A stretch of 30,802 nucleotides of DNA from a virus, in the IMG/VR virus record IMGVR_UViG_3300020198_000067, positions 1-30,802 of that record; one strand, 5' to 3'. Under the pieces are notes generated by a model. The model made no database searches and was not told where the DNA came from. It saw only the letters and a list, made by a program, of their open reading frames with translations. Below, in pieces: positions 6,401-27,775 of the stretch (positions are counted from its first letter, which is position 1; every line of letters begins with the position of its first letter). The position numbers and the translations under genes are program-made.

Positions 6401-7435
6401 ATGTTGTACCTCGATCAAAAATATCTGCTTTTGATTTCCTCGCAGTTGCAGGGCTTTATTCGCAAGTCGGATCGGCTCTACAATTGCCGATGTTTTCAGT
6501 GTGGTGATTCACGGAAAAAACAATCAAAGAAACGTGGGTACTTTTTTCCGTTTCAGAATCGTCTGGTCTACAAGTGTCATAATTGCGGACTAACGTGTAG
6601 CCTTCGATCAGTTCTGAAAAAAGTTAATCCTGAACAAGCCAAAGCGTACGGACTCGAATGGCTCAGGGAACAACGATCTTCTGCGACACTTCCGATGCGT
6701 CCCGTTGCACCATCTGTACCTGATGCCGCAAACTTGATTTCAGCCGATAAAATTCTGCTGGATGCGGGGGCTATTCCATGTAGTGAATTACCTGTAGGAC
6801 ATCGTGGTCGTTTATACTTAGAGAAACGACAATTGCCTGCTATGAAATGGTCTCGATTGTGGTATGCGAATAACTTTCGTTCCTTTGTGCGAGAGATTGA
6901 TCCCGTACTTGCCAAGACGATTCCCTGTGATGAGCCACGATTGGTGATTCCTGCGATTGATCGTCAGAACCATTTGATCGCGGTGTCGGGTCGTGCTATT
7001 TTACCTGAGTCGAAACTACGCTACCAGACGGTGAGAATCAAGGAATCTGCGACTCGTATTCTCTTTGGTCTGAATGAAATGGATCAGTATCAACCGCTCT
7101 ATGTTTGCGAGGGACCACTGGATAGTTTGTTTTTACCAAATGCTATCGCAGTGGGAAATTGTCAGCTAGGGGCTGCTGTGCCTGATATCAAGCATAGTAA
7201 TATTACGCTGATTTTCGATAACGAACGGCGTAACAAAGAACTGGTTCAGTCGATGCTGAAGGCCGTGAAAGAAGGCTATGCGGTGGTCTTCTGGCCTGAG
7301 ACGATCAAAGAAAAAGATATCAATGATATGATTCGGGCGGGATACGATTTAGATTATCTGCTCCGTATCATTAAGGATCATACCAAGGTTGGATTAGCAG
7401 CCTATACTGAATGGTCGTTTTGGAAGAAAACATAA
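6401..7435 (+). CDS. 61: DNA primase (T4 gp61-like)
   Basis: 344 residues, close to T4 gp61 (342). The N-terminal zinc-binding region has CFQC (C31/C34) and CHNC (C59/C62). The toprim catalytic core shows LYVCEGPLDSLF (acidic motif) and ITLIFDNERRN (DxN-type motif), with a final KEKDINDMI segment typical of the family. It would synthesise short RNA primers for lagging-strand replication with the gp41-type helicase, which is not in the window. The ATG at 6401 has a weak ribosome site (CTGTGATAT); no better in-frame start is apparent. It is followed after 9 bases by thyX. Confidence 0.88.
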   Translation: MLYLDQKYLLLISSQLQGFIRKSDRLYNCRCFQCGDSRKKQSKKRGYFFPFQNRLVYKCHNCGLTCSLRSVLKKVNPEQAKAYGLEWLREQRSSATLPMRPVAPSVPDAANLISADKILLDAGAIPCSELPVGHRGRLYLEKRQLPAMKWSRLWYANNFRSFVREIDPVLAKTIPCDEPRLVIPAIDRQNHLIAVSGRAILPESKLRYQTVRIKESATRILFGLNEMDQYQPLYVCEGPLDSLFLPNAIAVGNCQLGAAVPDIKHSNITLIFDNERRNKELVQSMLKAVKEGYAVVFWPETIKEKDINDMIRAGYDLDYLLRIIKDHTKVGLAAYTEWSFWKKT

Positions 7436-7444
7436 GGAGGAATC

Positions 7445-8083
7445 ATGCTAGTTGAATTACGTAGTATCAGCCGAACGGACAATATGACACCAGAGGAGTT
7501 CATTGTCTACTGCGCTCGGGTCTCGAATCCTGCGAATCAGTATAACAATGAGACAGCCCCGAAGCTCCTGCAATATCTGATTAAGAATCAGCACTGGAGT
7601 CCCTTTGAAATGGTCTCCATGACGCTTGAAATAAATAGTACCAGGGATATTATTCGGCAGATTCTTCGTCACCGTAGTTTTTCATTTCAAGAATTCAGTC
7701 AGCGATATGCCGATCCCACAGCAAACTTCGGGTTTGTGATTCGGGATGCACGACTCCAAGATAAGAAAAATAGGCAGAACAGCTTAGTCTGTGATGACCA
7801 GCAATTGCAAGACGAATGGGCACAGCGTCAGCAAGAGGTGATTGAATTAGCGAAACTTACGTATTTCTGGGCTGTCTCTCACGGAATTGCCAAGGAACAA
7901 GCCCGTGTCGTGCTACCTGAGGGCAATACACCAAGTCGTATCTATATGACAGGCACGATTCGGAGTTGGTATCATTACTGTGAAGTACGCTGTAAGCCCG
8001 ATACACAATTGGAGCATCGGGAAATTGCTAATGCGGTCTGGGATATTTTGCTTGAGCAGATACCATCATTATATTTTGTGTGA
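7445..8083 (+). CDS. thyX: Flavin-dependent thymidylate synthase ThyX
   Basis: 212 residues, with strong ribosome site AAGGAGG. The ThyX signature RHRSFSFQEFSQRY (R75-H76-R77...S...Y88) is complete, and WSPFEM and the substrate-binding LPEGNTPSRIYMTGTIRSW segment are present. It makes dTMP from dUMP with FAD/NADPH and methylenetetrahydrofolate, instead of the T4-type td (ThyA) enzyme. Its neighbours are primase and ribonucleotide reductase, a DNA-precursor operon. The coding end is duplicated immediately after the stop (see the repeat at 8053). Confidence 0.95.
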   Translation: MLVELRSISRTDNMTPEEFIVYCARVSNPANQYNNETAPKLLQYLIKNQHWSPFEMVSMTLEINSTRDIIRQILRHRSFSFQEFSQRYADPTANFGFVIRDARLQDKKNRQNSLVCDDQQLQDEWAQRQQEVIELAKLTYFWAVSHGIAKEQARVVLPEGNTPSRIYMTGTIRSWYHYCEVRCKPDTQLEHREIANAVWDILLEQIPSLYFV

Positions 8084-8098
8084 GCAGCTACCATCATT
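8053..8098 (+). repeat. 18-base tandem-like repeat across the thyX stop
   Basis: TGAGCAGATACCATCATT (8053-8070) recurs as TGAGCAGCTACCATCATT (8081-8098), 17 of 18 identical. The second copy begins with the thyX TGA stop, so the 3' end of thyX is echoed in the spacer before nrdA. Confidence 0.85.
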
Positions 8099-8140
8099 TG
8101 GAGACTTAACTGCATAACATGCGCGCTTATGAGGAGGACT

Positions 8141-8677
8141 ATGAAATATAAAACCACGATTGATTCGACCCGCGATGCCCTGTTTGATGAACTAGGATTC
8201 AAGCGAATGCGCGAATCCTACATGACCGAGACAGAATCATCCCCGCAGGAGCGATTTGCTTTTGTGGCTAGTGCCTTTGCCAGCAATGAGGAACACGCTC
8301 AACGACTCTATGATTATGCCTCACAACATTGGCTAAGTTTCGCTACGCCCATTTTGTCATTTGCTGCCAAGAAGCGGCAATTGCCGATCAGTTGTTTTAC
8401 TGGCGACACTCTAGTTGACACTAAACGAGGAATGATTCCAATTTCTCAGCTTCAAGTTGGCGATCTAGTTTTGTCGCATGACGGAACATATCAACCAGTC
8501 GTAAACATTCAAACGCAAACCAGCGATGATCTATATGAACTAGAATTTAGAGGTGATGTTTTCCATGTGACAGGTAATCATTTAGTTCTGACCAAAGAGG
8601 ATGGCTGGGTTCGGGTAGACGAACTTGATTCAAAGAAGCACAATATTGAGTACGTTCAGGATGATTCTTCGGAATGA
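8141..8677 (+). CDS. nrdA: NrdA N-terminal extein fused to N-half of a split intein
   Basis: 178 residues. The ATG at 8141 is chosen because GAGGAGGA lies 5 bases upstream; an in-frame ATG at 8129 overlaps that ribosome site. Residues 1-84 are the start of a class I ribonucleotide reductase large subunit (WLSFATPILSFAAKKRQLPIS). There is no ATP-cone, so this is a short NrdA/NrdE-like form. At residue 85 the intein begins with Cys (CFTGDTLVDTKRGMIPISQL, block A), with block B VTGNHLVLTKEDGWVRVDEL (TxxH). The ORF stops at codon 179 without intein C-terminal blocks. The matching C-half starts at 9557. Splicing in trans is needed to make active enzyme. The last 131 bases are overlapped antisense by the endonuclease gene. 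Confidence 0.92.
   Translation: MKYKTTIDSTRDALFDELGFKRMRESYMTETESSPQERFAFVASAFASNEEHAQRLYDYASQHWLSFATPILSFAAKKRQLPISCFTGDTLVDTKRGMIPISQLQVGDLVLSHDGTYQPVVNIQTQTSDDLYELEFRGDVFHVTGNHLVLTKEDGWVRVDELDSKKHNIEYVQDDSSE
8393..8674 (+). other. Split intein N-fragment (IntN) coding segment
   Basis: 94 codons from the nucleophile Cys1 (TGT 8393-8395) to the stop. Hint-fold block A (CFTGDT, ISQLQVGDLVLS) and block B (VTGNH with the conserved Thr and His) are intact. There is no DOD or HNH domain within the reading frame, so the endonuclease function is separated into its own gene. Confidence 0.9.
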
Positions 8678-9500
8678 AATCGAAACCTAAATCTTTCGGT
8701 GTACATCCGATGACCATTTTGTTGACATAGGGATTTTTCTTTACGCTATGAATGGTGAAAGGTTTTGAGGAGTTTCTACAATAGTTTCGATATATGCCTT
8801 GCAGACCAGTAAAATTACCAAAGGGCGTGATATAGATTCCGCAGTATGTTTTCTTTAGTGACGCTCCTGATTGCCGAAGATTGTTGTAATATTCCTTTAT
8901 GCCTTTTGATATATTGTGATTGTGTTTCAATGGTCTATTTTGAGAATAGATACTCATATTGAGGGTATTGATTCGTTTAGACCCTATGCAGGCAATACTA
9001 TGTTTTTTGCGATTCTCTGGATTTGAATATAATTCTTTTTTCTGTTGAGACAATTTTCGTCGGGTGTCTTCTGATACATTAGGAGTGCCGTCTAAATTGT
9101 ATCCTCTCACAAAAACGCCTCGTCTGAAATTGGAAAGTTGGATTTTTGCATTTTCGATGAATCTACTGTTGACTGATTTTAGTTGAAAATTTTTCACATG
9201 TACTTGCCCCGATGTTCTTAGAATTGACAAGATTTGAGACTGTGTTCCAAATACTTTGTAGAGAAGAATATGAGCAATGATGTGTTGCCTGTATGTTAGA
9301 ATCGAGCGATTCCAAGGATGCAATGCGAGATTTTTGTATTCTGGGAACATATCTTTAGCTTTAGGGCAAATATGATGTTGTTCCATGTATTGAGATGGAT
9401 TAGTCGTATTGTACGCTTGACAACGCTGGATAAATGATATATACCTGTTCAGATAGTGACTGTTATGCTTTCGCGCAGAGAGAATGATATGGATGTTCAT
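8547..9500 (-). CDS. HNH homing endonuclease between the split nrdA halves
   Basis: 317 residues on the strand opposite to nrdA. Ribosome site GGAGAA is 4 bases before the ATG. The HNH core is YMEQHHICPKAKDMFPEYKN (H42, H43), then WNRSILTYRQHIIAHILLYK (N64, H73, H77). This ExHHIxPK...N...LTxRxHxxAHxLL layout is typical of phage HNH endonucleases. A Lys/Asn/Tyr-rich DNA-binding tail follows. The final ~43 codons overlap the intein N-fragment antisense. DNA is more AT-rich than the flanking nrdA. A consensus late promoter lies 32 bases upstream of its start. It probably cleaves intein-free nrdA alleles and spreads the split-intein insertion; that role is inferred from position. Confidence 0.88.
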   Translation of the reverse strand: MNIHIILSARKHNSHYLNRYISFIQRCQAYNTTNPSQYMEQHHICPKAKDMFPEYKNLALHPWNRSILTYRQHIIAHILLYKVFGTQSQILSILRTSGQVHVKNFQLKSVNSRFIENAKIQLSNFRRGVFVRGYNLDGTPNVSEDTRRKLSQQKKELYSNPENRKKHSIACIGSKRINTLNMSIYSQNRPLKHNHNISKGIKEYYNNLRQSGASLKKTYCGIYITPFGNFTGLQGIYRNYCRNSSKPFTIHSVKKNPYVNKMVIGCTPKDLGFDFIPKNHPERTQYCASLNQVRLPEPSHPLWSELNDYLSHGKHHL

Positions 9501-9531
9501 AGTGTTCTCCGTTTCTTCGTGCTTTCTATCT

Positions 9532-9539
9532 TATTTATA
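9532..9539 (-). promoter_or_regulatory. T4-type late promoter for the homing endonuclease
   Basis: Minus-strand TATAAATA, an exact match to the T4 late promoter box, 32 bases before the endonuclease ATG (9500). It lies between the endonuclease and the IntC half of nrdA, so the endonuclease can be transcribed late and against nrdA. Confidence 0.75.
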
Positions 9540-9556
9540 CGACTGGAGGCGTCAAA

Positions 9557-9664
9557 ATGAGTTTTTCACTGAAAAAAATTAACAAAACTGCTCTGGTATA
9601 TGATATTGAGGTGAAAAACACTCATACATTCACCGTCGGTAATAGTAGAATGATTGTTCACAAC
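9557..9664 (+). other. Split intein C-fragment (IntC) coding segment
   Basis: 36 codons. Block F is ALVYDIEVKNTHTFTVGN and block G MIVHN, followed by Cys+1 (TGC 9665-9667). The penultimate His and terminal Asn needed for Asn cyclisation are present. Fragment sizes (94 + 36) match natural split inteins. Confidence 0.9.
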
Positions 9665-11200
9665 TGCTACCTTCCCTATCTGGCTGACACCGCTGAGGGA
9701 TTAGTTGATACACTCTCTGAGGTCAATTGGCTCTCGATGCTTGGCGGTGGGATTGGCATTGGAATTGGTATTCGTTCGAGTGATGAAAAGTCCACGGGAA
9801 TCATGCCGCATCTTCGTACCTATGATGCCTCATGCTTGGCCTATCGTCAGGGACAGACACGGCGTGGTAGTTATGCGATGTATCTAGATATTACGCATCC
9901 CGATATTCTTCTGTTCTTGGAAATGCGAAAGCCCACTGGTGATCCGAATATGCGATGCCAGAATCTGCACCATGGCATTCTGATTCCTGATACTTTCATG
10001 CAGTTGATTGAGCGATGTATGCTTGATCCTCATATCGATGATACCTGGGAATTGAAGGATCCCCATAGTCAAGAAGTTCGTGATAAGATTTCCGCGAAAG
10101 AGTTGTGGCAGAGGATTCTAGAGACACGAATGCAAACAGGCGAGCCTTATATTCTGTTCATCGATACTGCGAATAAAGCCTTGCCAGAACCGCAGAAGCA
10201 GCTAGGACTGAAGGTTAATCAGTCCAATCTTTGCGCCGAGGTGGTCTTGGCAACAAATAAAGATCGAACGGCGGTCTGCTGTTTGTCCTCTGTGAATCTT
10301 GAATATTACGATCAATGGAAAACGGTACCTGAATTCATTCCAGACATTGTGGAAATGCTTGATAATGTCCTTCAGTATTTTATCGATCATGCGCCTCCAA
10401 CGATTTCTCGTGCGGTGTATTCAGCCTCACAGGAACGCAGCATCGGAATTGGCGCCTTGGGCTTTCATGCGTTTCTCCAGAAGCACAATGTACCCTGGGA
10501 ATCGTCTACTGCGGTCTCCTATAATAAATCTATGTTTCGGCATATCAAAAAACGGATCGATGAAACAAATCTAAAATTGGGGAAGGAACGTGGTGAAGCT
10601 CCTGATATGAAGGGTACGGGCAAACGATTTGCTCATACCACGGCAATTGCGCCGAATGCCAGCACCAGTCTGATTATGGGCAATAGTTCGCCCTCAGTAG
10701 AACCCTTTCGAGCCAATGCTTACCGACAGGATACGCTCTCGGGGATGTACGTAAACAAGAATCGATTCTTGGATGCTGTAATCAAGAAATTGTGCGAGAC
10801 TGATAAGCGTCTAGACTACAATGAAATTTGGTCCTCTATTATTGCCAATGACGGATCGGTGCAGCACCTGACTTGTCTGGATGATACTACTAAAAAGGTC
10901 TTTAAGACCGCAATGGAAATCGATCAAAGATGGATTATTCAACATGCCGCAGATCGCCAGGAGTTTATTGATCAGGCGCAATCGATCAATATTTTCTTTC
11001 GGCCTGATACGAATATCAAGTATCTCCATGCGGTTCATTTTCAAGCCTGGAAAGAGGGTTTGAAAACACTCTACTATTGCCGTTCTGAGAAGTTGATGAA
11101 GGCTGATAAAATCGCCAAGAAGATTGAACGCGAGGCGATCAAGTCCATTGACCTGAAAGCCCTGACAGAAGGTGAAACGTGTCTGGCTTGTGAGGGTTGA
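9557..11200 (+). CDS. nrdA: Split intein C-half fused to NrdA C-terminal extein (catalytic barrel)
   Basis: 547 residues with its own ribosome site (TGGAGG). Residues 1-36 are the intein C-fragment ending MIVHN; the +1 residue is C37, which is the N-terminal member of the active-site cysteine pair (E. coli C225 equivalent). The barrel has NLCAEV (N224, C226, E228; E. coli N437/C439/E441) and AVCCLSS (C241; E. coli C462). A YY pair lies in LKTLYYCRS, and the C-terminal redox pair is in CLACEG (C542, C545). All catalytic residues are present, so the spliced 595-residue enzyme should reduce ribonucleotides with an NrdB partner that is not in this window. Confidence 0.93.
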   Translation: MSFSLKKINKTALVYDIEVKNTHTFTVGNSRMIVHNCYLPYLADTAEGLVDTLSEVNWLSMLGGGIGIGIGIRSSDEKSTGIMPHLRTYDASCLAYRQGQTRRGSYAMYLDITHPDILLFLEMRKPTGDPNMRCQNLHHGILIPDTFMQLIERCMLDPHIDDTWELKDPHSQEVRDKISAKELWQRILETRMQTGEPYILFIDTANKALPEPQKQLGLKVNQSNLCAEVVLATNKDRTAVCCLSSVNLEYYDQWKTVPEFIPDIVEMLDNVLQYFIDHAPPTISRAVYSASQERSIGIGALGFHAFLQKHNVPWESSTAVSYNKSMFRHIKKRIDETNLKLGKERGEAPDMKGTGKRFAHTTAIAPNASTSLIMGNSSPSVEPFRANAYRQDTLSGMYVNKNRFLDAVIKKLCETDKRLDYNEIWSSIIANDGSVQHLTCLDDTTKKVFKTAMEIDQRWIIQHAADRQEFIDQAQSINIFFRPDTNIKYLHAVHFQAWKEGLKTLYYCRSEKLMKADKIAKKIEREAIKSIDLKALTEGETCLACEG

Positions 11201-12294: not shown

Positions 12295-12678
12295 TCAATG
12301 CCCATCTTCTTTCTTCTTATAATCGTTCAAAGCGGCCTTAATCGCATCTTCCGCCAGCACCGAGCAGTGAATCTTCACGGGCGGCAGATTGAGCTCCTGC
12401 ACGATCTCGGTGTTCTTGATCTTTTCCGCTTCCTGCAGGGTCTTGCCCTTCAGCCATTCAGTTGCAAGGCTTGAGCTTGCGATGGCCGAGCCGCAGCCGA
12501 ATGTCTTGAATCGGGCATCGACGATGCGGTCCTGCTCCACCTTGATCTGTAACTTCATAACGTCACCGCACTCCGGTGCGCCCACGATCCCAGTGCCGAC
12601 GTCCTCATCTTCCTTCTTGAAGGACCCCATGTTCCTGGGGTTGTTGAAATGATCGAGCACCTTGTCGCTGTAAGCCAT
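12295..12678 (-). CDS. iscU: Fe-S cluster assembly scaffold IscU
   Basis: 127 residues, the full length of bacterial IscU (E. coli 128). The start MAYSDKVLDHFNNPRN and all functional residues are conserved: C37 and D39 (GAPECGDVM), C62 (TFGCGSAIASSS), H104 and C105 (KIHCSVL), and the HscA-binding LPPVK (98-102). It would accept sulfur from IscS and iron to build [2Fe-2S] clusters, so it should function with host IscS/HscAB. No other isc gene is beside it. GC content (55-63% in sampled 60-base lines) is clearly above neighbouring genes, suggesting recent acquisition from a host. It lies downstream of gp23 on the same strand, beyond the capsid terminator; ribosome site is weak (AGAAAG). Confidence 0.95.
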   Translation of the reverse strand: MAYSDKVLDHFNNPRNMGSFKKEDEDVGTGIVGAPECGDVMKLQIKVEQDRIVDARFKTFGCGSAIASSSLATEWLKGKTLQEAEKIKNTEIVQELNLPPVKIHCSVLAEDAIKAALNDYKKKEDGH

Positions 12679-15378: not shown

Positions 15379-15386
15379 TATTTATA
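15379..15386 (-). promoter_or_regulatory. Late promoter for gp22-gp23
   Basis: Minus-strand TATAAATACT, exact T4 late consensus, 39 bases before the gp22 ATG and after the gp21 stop. It would boost scaffold and capsid expression. Confidence 0.8.
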
Positions 15387-17481: not shown

Positions 17482-17489
17482 TATTTATA
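17482..17489 (-). promoter_or_regulatory. Late promoter for the gp67 prohead-core operon
   Basis: Minus-strand TATAAATACT, exact late consensus, 18 bases before the gp67 ATG, in the gp20-gp67 gap. Confidence 0.8.
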
Positions 17490-21931: not shown

Positions 21932-21939
21932 TATTTATA
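21932..21939 (-). promoter_or_regulatory. Late promoter for gp18
   Basis: Minus-strand TATAAATACTTG, exact late consensus, 54 bases before the gp18 ATG and just after the gp17 stop. Confidence 0.8.
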
Positions 21940-27767: not shown

Positions 27768-27775
27768 TATTTATA
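27768..27775 (-). promoter_or_regulatory. Late promoter at the head of the structural block
   Basis: Minus-strand TATAAATA, exact late consensus, 20 bases before the gp13 ATG. It is back-to-back with the rightward early promoter at 27857. Confidence 0.82.

What the first reader, a model, noticed from the sequence alone, without database searches (positions are those of the whole stretch)
8141..11200. Fractured nrdA: split intein halves separated by an opposite-strand HNH homing endonuclease
Seen: NrdA residues run into a Cys1 intein block A/B that stops at 8677. A second frame at 9557 with its own ribosome site starts with intein blocks F/G and continues at the exact extein junction (LPIS|C...HN|CYLPYLAD). 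An HNH gene on the minus strand fills the gap. Known: fractured genes with split inteins and interposed endonucleases were described from marine metagenomes (gp41, IMPDH, NrdJ/NrdA), mainly with Vsr-like endonucleases. Here the endonuclease is HNH-type and antisense. The insertion sits exactly at the catalytic Cys (E. coli C225 equivalent), so trans-splicing gates ribonucleotide reduction. A compact 94+36 residue intein may also be useful as a fast natural trans-splicing pair.
Basis: partly seen in the sequence, partly recalled or inferred. Interest (0 to 1): 0.92.

Follow-up and report, generated by a model that had tools for sequence, protein, structure and literature searches.

The report
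Phage enzyme gene split by intein
In an uncultured T4-like phage, the gene for the DNA-building-block enzyme NrdA is cut in two by a self-splicing protein element (a split intein) wrapped around a DNA-cutting gene that lies on the opposite strand behind the phage's own late-gene switch; relatives of the same insert sit at the same spot in other phages, intact, decayed or missing, so it behaves like a jumping parasite of a conserved cysteine codon.

Summary
nrdA is split into an 84-aa N-extein plus 94-aa IntN (8141-8677) and a 36-aa IntC plus 511-aa C-extein (9557-11200). A 317-aa HNH gene lies antisense between them (9500-8547). Joining the exteins gives a 595-aa NrdA that aligns without a gap at the junction to intact 596-599-aa NrdAs of related phages. 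The insertion precedes the Cys codon equivalent to E. coli C225.

The window is a T4-like phage fragment. HNH genes 42-55% identical lie antisense beside the same intein halves at the same nrdA site in five other lineages. Alleles with a decayed HNH, a re-fused intein or no insert also exist. Intein identity stays at 48-71% while extein identity falls to 30%, which indicates horizontal spread.

The HNH gene has a perfect T4-type late promoter, one of only five in the window; the other four precede late structural genes. Its last 43 codons overlap IntN antisense, and this overlap is conserved. Several relatives carry a second split intein at the next catalytic cysteine.

It belongs to the known 'fractured gene' kind, as a variant with an antisense, late-promoted HNH. 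Splicing and cleavage are inferred.

The parts
8132..8137 (+). ribosome-binding site (gaggagg region) of the nrdA N-part
   Evidence: sequence
8141..8392 (+). N-extein of NrdA, 84 aa, ends ...QLPIS
   Evidence: Pfam Ribonuc_red_lgN 2.6e-14; alignment to intact alleles
8393..8677 (+). IntN, 94 aa, Cys1 (CFTGDT), block B TGNH, plus stop codon
   Evidence: Hint_2 5e-10; profile hits to solved inteins 2lwy and 6qaz; family alignments
8547..9500 (-). MobE-like HNH homing endonuclease gene, 317 aa, antisense to nrdA
   Evidence: phrog_655 1.3e-17; T4 MobE similarity; invariant H42 H43 N64 H73 H77 in A1
8547..8677 (.). 131-bp antisense overlap of the HNH C-terminal tail with IntN
9507..9510 (-). GGAG ribosome-binding site of the HNH gene
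   Evidence: sequence
9532..9539 (-). T4-type late promoter TATAAATA, 39 bp upstream of the HNH start
9545..9549 (+). GGAGG ribosome-binding site of the IntC/NrdA C-part
   Evidence: sequence
9557..9664 (+). IntC, 36 aa, ends ...MIVHN (penultimate His, terminal Asn)
   Evidence: alignment A6; Pfam Intein_splicing C-end
9665..11200 (+). C-extein of NrdA, 511 aa, starts at the +1 Cys (C225 equivalent), plus stop codon
   Evidence: RNR barrel 9.6e-107; gapless junction with intact alleles
15379..15386 (-). TATAAATA upstream of the scaffold gene (comparison late promoter)
17482..17489 (-). TATAAATA upstream of a minus-strand late-region gene (comparison)
21932..21939 (-). TATAAATA upstream of the tail sheath gene (comparison)
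27768..27775 (-). TATAAATA upstream of a minus-strand late-region gene (comparison)

Best explanation
A mobile split-intein/HNH element has fractured the phage nrdA gene. Early or middle plus-strand transcription makes two polypeptides, NrdA-N:IntN and IntC:NrdA-C, which associate through a Hint-fold intein and are joined by protein trans-splicing to give full-length NrdA with its C225-type cysteine as the +1 residue (inferred from conserved motifs, not shown). The HNH gene is transcribed from the opposite strand by a T4-type late promoter, so the nuclease should appear late, together with the structural genes. It should cut intein-free nrdA of co-infecting phages near the insertion point, and repair would copy the whole IntN-HNH-IntC unit (inferred from the distribution of alleles). 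Over time the HNH decays while the intein must stay, because it is needed to rejoin NrdA. Shown here: anatomy, gapless empty site, conserved recurrence, allele series, late-promoter match. Inferred: splicing, cutting, timing.
For: Domains. Gapless junction with intact 596-599-aa alleles. HNH homologues antisense at the same site in L018/19, L020-24, L025, L034, L046 and a contig binned with a Prevotella MAG, L095. Decayed HNH in L047, L049/L053 and a fused 127-aa intein in L093. Inteins 48-71% identical while exteins range 30-84%; in the extein tree the window groups with intein-free L003/L004 (0.98) and other intein-bearing alleles scatter among intein-free ones. The fused homologue folds as an intein at pLDDT 97, Z 20.6 to 2lwy and 18.7 to gp41-1. 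TATAAATA five times in the window (expected 0.89), all minus strand, each within 120 bp upstream of a minus-strand ORF. Late-promoter-like boxes upstream of all six intein-resident HNH genes examined (exact in 3, shuffle P 0.00065).
Against: No splicing, cleavage or expression data. The record is a 30.8-kb fragment without nrdB in view, so another nrdA elsewhere is not excluded. The homing site is unknown, and no similarity was found between the empty site and the HNH promoter region. The relaxed promoter motif used for three of six relatives was chosen after seeing them.
Confidence: 0.88

Rival explanations
1. Genes in pieces without splicing: the two NrdA fragments assemble non-covalently, as in Aeromonas phage Aeh1, and the intein halves are inert remains.
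For: Aeh1 nrdA split by mobE works without an intein (PMC2988022). The T4 MobE family is the nearest characterised nuclease.
Against: Cys1, TGNH, penultimate His, terminal Asn and +1 Cys are invariant across lineages whose inteins differ by 29-52%. The intein persists where the HNH has decayed. The break lies exactly at the intein junction.
Confidence: 0.06
2. The locus is a dead allele: nrdA is broken, and a working copy exists elsewhere in this phage or is supplied by the host.
For: The record is a fragment.
Against: No frameshift or stop in either half; both have ribosome sites; a near-identical second assembly exists; relatives of 165 and 202 kb have a single nrdA.
Confidence: 0.04
3. RNA-level element: the gap is a self-splicing intron that restores an mRNA.
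For: HNH genes often sit in group I introns in phages (PMC2988022).
Against: No Rfam match anywhere in the window. Both halves carry intein sequence with their own stop and start codons and ribosome sites.
Confidence: 0.01
4. The HNH is not a homing enzyme for this site but a late gene that landed in a pre-existing split intein, and the whole unit is inherited vertically.
For: Cleavage untested; free-standing HNH relatives sit elsewhere in other phages.
Against: Same site in exteins only 30% identical with inteins 56% identical (L047), and intein-bearing alleles scattered among intein-free ones.
Confidence: 0.12

Closest known systems
Fractured genes with split inteins from Global Ocean Sampling data (Dassa et al. 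2009, doi 10.1093/nar/gkp095; full text not held)
   Same: Conserved DNA-metabolism enzyme, nrdA included, broken by a split intein with an endonuclease gene between the halves. PMC3653736 cites this work for 7 nrdA and 2 nrdJ cases interrupted by inteins.
   Different: As recalled, about half of those endonucleases are Vsr-like. Here the nuclease is MobE-like HNH, antisense, behind a T4 late promoter, and overlaps IntN. Whether any of their loci share these traits could not be checked.
Aeromonas phage Aeh1 split nrdA with mobE (Friedrich et al. 2007; described in PMC2988022)
   Same: HNH homing endonuclease interrupts nrdA of a T4-like phage.
   Different: No intein there; the fragments work without being joined. 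The reviewed controls for Aeh1 mobE are an RBS hairpin with promoters, and RNase E-like processing.
NrdJ-1 and gp41-1 split inteins (PDB 8ubs, 6qaz)
   Same: Same Hint fold (Z 18.3 and 18.7 to the fused homologue); gp41-1 also a sequence hit.
   Different: Only 26-29% identical. Recalled from memory, NrdJ-1 sits at the SEI site, which matches the second fracture site seen in relatives, not the site in this window.
ShiLan-type hidden HNH endonucleases in phage methylases (PMC11855218)
   Same: HNH homing gene overlapping a host reading frame.
   Different: Same-strand alternate frame, no intein or splicing domain detected.
T4 segD (PMC2988022)
   Same: Antisense homing endonuclease gene in a T4 phage.
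   Different: The review assumes vanishingly low segD transcription; this HNH has its own late-promoter match.

Membership tests
Fractured gene with split intein | Conserved enzyme gene broken into two ORFs at an intein junction | tested here: met
Fractured gene with split intein | IntN carries blocks A/B, IntC carries F/G with its own start codon | tested here: met
   fused homologue L093 folds as an intein
Fractured gene with split intein | Endonuclease gene between the halves | tested here: met
Fractured gene with split intein | Halves trans-splice | not testable with these tools
   needs co-expression and mass spectrometry
Fractured gene, Vsr-like subgroup | Vsr-like endonuclease | tested here: not met
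   HNH by PHROG and MobE similarity
MobE-like HNH homing endonuclease | HNH motif and similarity to phage homing endonucleases | tested here: met
   phrog_655 1.3e-17; T4 MobE 31% over 158 aa, E 3e-6; motif invariant
MobE-like HNH homing endonuclease | HNH fold of the catalytic domain | tested here: inconclusive
   AlphaFold model poor, pLDDT 51
MobE-like HNH homing endonuclease | Cuts intein-free nrdA and drives its own copying | not testable with these tools
   only distribution evidence
Aeh1-type genes in pieces | No splicing element at the break | tested here: not met
   intein halves present
Group I intron | Intron RNA structure | tested here: not met
   no Rfam match in the window at gathering threshold
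T4-type late promoter | TATAAATA shortly upstream of the gene | tested here: met
T4-type late promoter | Transcription starts there late in infection | not testable with these tools
   needs RNA end mapping

The most novel reading that the evidence does not exclude
The antisense HNH gene has overprinted the intein: its last 43 residues are encoded on the reverse strand of the essential IntN, so nuclease and intein are locked together. Late antisense transcription from the HNH promoter would run into the nrdA N-part and could reduce NrdA synthesis when late genes switch on. The element would then be both a homing parasite and a timed off-switch for nucleotide synthesis.
Probability: 0.25. Interest if true: 0.75.

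Novelty: new variant of a known kind. Interest (0 to 1): 0.55.

Why it matters
It gives a comparative series for one mobile split intein at one site: empty, fractured with an HNH gene with or without the antisense overlap, HNH decayed, and apparently re-fused. How natural split inteins arise and disappear is an open question that this series makes testable. Relatives with a second split intein at the next catalytic cysteine would build NrdA from three separately made chains, natural examples of tandem trans-splicing. The 94+36 pair and its orthologues are candidate ligation tools, still untested.

Tried and rejected
AlphaFold of the HNH protein (5 sequences) gave pLDDT 51 and was not used. PDB sequence search with the HNH profile found nothing useful. 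A test for an I-TevI-style operator, similarity between the empty nrdA site and the HNH promoter region, was negative. Rfam found no intron. No intrinsic terminator was found at 7400-9700. The Dassa 2009 paper is not held. The reading that the antisense overlap is proved to be under HNH selection was not adopted: overlap codons are more conserved than the rest of IntN (0.744 vs 0.498, P 0.0002), and L095, whose HNH lacks the tail, shows no clear excess (0.513 vs 0.434), but alleles with a decayed or lost HNH show the excess too (0.797 and 0.707). Shared ancestry is therefore not excluded. Six related sequences also make the permutation P optimistic.

Full report
What is there. The window is a 30,802-base IMG/VR virus record. 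Its right half holds T4-like structural genes on the minus strand: gp23 capsid, scaffold, protease, gp20 portal, sheath, terminase, gp15, neck. Its left half holds replication and nucleotide genes on the plus strand, including a primase-like gene and thyX. nrdA follows thyX and is in two pieces. The first ORF encodes 84 aa of NrdA and a 94-aa IntN; the second encodes a 36-aa IntC and 511 aa of NrdA. Between them, on the minus strand, lies a 317-aa HNH ORF.

The junction. Joining the exteins gives 595 aa that align without a gap at the junction to intact NrdAs of 596-599 aa in L003-L016, 68-76% identical in the C-part. The intact alleles read PIS|C at the insertion point. The phage NrdA aligns with solved class I NrdA structures, and its LPISC cysteine matches the LPISC of 6dqw. 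That this is the E. coli C225 equivalent follows from established knowledge of RNR active sites. L002 is a second assembly of the same phage, 99.96% identical over 11.5 kb.

The intein. IntN has Cys1 and TGNH; IntC ends in HN followed by the extein Cys. A relative, L093, carries the same intein as one continuous 127-aa element in one reading frame. A model of L093 built with fragments of the family, the window's included, reaches pLDDT 97 and matches solved inteins and intein-like domains at Z up to 20.6. This supports the Hint fold for the family; the window's own two-chain complex was not modelled.

The nuclease. It matches PHROG homing endonuclease and HNH families and T4 MobE weakly (31% over 158 aa, E 3e-6). 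No phage in the annotated collection carries a close relative (best long match 29% identity). In IMG/VR, homologues of 53-55% identity occur in L018/19, L020-24, L025 and L034, and one of 40-42% in L046. L095, a contig binned with a Prevotella genome, has one of about 35%. All lie antisense to nrdA between IntN and IntC; in L046 the contig ends before IntC.

Mobility. The family shows empty sites (L003-L016), full elements, elements with only a 52-75-aa remnant of the HNH (L047, L049, L053) and a fused intein without HNH (L093). L093 still reads openly in the antisense HNH-tail frame, which suggests that it was re-fused after HNH loss; this is an inference from one sequence. In the extein tree the window groups with intein-free L003/L004 (support 0.98), and L034 and L049 with other intein-free alleles, while the intein tree is poorly resolved. 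Window and L047 share 56% of the intein but 30% of the extein. Sporadic occurrence plus this mismatch points to horizontal movement. For the second site, L020/L028 (HNH insert) and its sibling L021/L029 (no insert) share 99-100% identity over most of their length; identity drops to 0.73-0.88 next to the insertion, as co-conversion would leave, although other low-identity patches also occur.

Timing. TATAAATA, the T4 late promoter core, occurs five times in the window, against 0.89 expected, all on the minus strand. Each lies 11-119 bp upstream of a minus-strand ORF start, a zone that covers 2.9% of strand positions. Four precede genes of the late region; the fifth is 39 bp upstream of the HNH start. 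Of six intein-resident HNH genes, three have the exact box within 60 bp (shuffle P 0.00065) and the other three a variant (CATAAATA or CTAAATA) chosen after inspection. Late expression is the known habit of T4 intron endonucleases such as I-TevI (PMC2988022). An antisense gene with its own late promoter would be separated in time from early nrdA transcription; this is an inference.

The overlap. The last 43 HNH codons lie antisense to the IntN end, and the tail is conserved in protein sequence. Codon choice in IntN is more conserved inside the overlap than outside it (0.744 vs 0.498). L095, where the HNH stops at the IntN end, shows no clear excess. Alleles with a decayed or lost HNH keep the excess, so active selection on the tail is suggested, not established.

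Second fracture. L018/19 (GIY-YIG gene), L020, L034, L093 and L095 (HNH genes) and L025 (no nuclease) carry a further split intein at NLC|SEI, the C439 region, so that their NrdA would be made from three chains, or two in L093 where the first intein is fused. This is outside the window.

Verdict. The kind is known (Dassa et al. 2009, cited in PMC3653736 for seven intein-interrupted nrdA cases). The antisense MobE-like HNH, its late promoter and its overlap with IntN make it a variant; I could not check whether the 2009 loci include such forms.

Noticed in passing
L018 2088-4945, L020 1728-4774, L025 2824-4944, L055 1410-4431, L093 3305-6896, L095 116-1972: A second split intein at the NLC|SEI site (C439 region) of the same nrdA, with GIY-YIG, HNH or no nuclease in the gap: NrdA in three pieces (two in L093, whose first intein is fused).
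   Followed up: partly
L028 2711-4095 versus L029 5248-5253: Insertion polymorphism of the second element between near-identical phages, with lower identity flanking the insert.
   Followed up: partly
L049 and L053, 4472-6372: NrdA C-part ends in an intein-N-like tail (...EGDELKI) after EAPDA and resumes in another ORF: possible third fracture site without an obvious Cys1 or IntC.
   Followed up: no
window 12295-12678 (-): Phage-borne IscU/NifU-like iron-sulfur scaffold gene (Pfam NifU_N 4.5e-54); a 73% relative lies in L006.
   Followed up: no
L036, L037, L039, L043 upstream of free-standing HNH genes: Shared leader (GTCGCGGTA...AATACCCACTAA in L036, L037, L039; diverged in L043) that can form a hairpin, with TATAAATA about 80 nt upstream in L036. 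Folding is not clearly better than shuffles (z -0.5 to -1.2).
   Followed up: partly
Salmonella phage S16-like and Proteus phage PM2 records (H101-H110): IntN-like match inside UvsW helicase genes, in the Salmonella phages spanning two annotated ORFs: possible fractured or intein-bearing uvsW.
   Followed up: no
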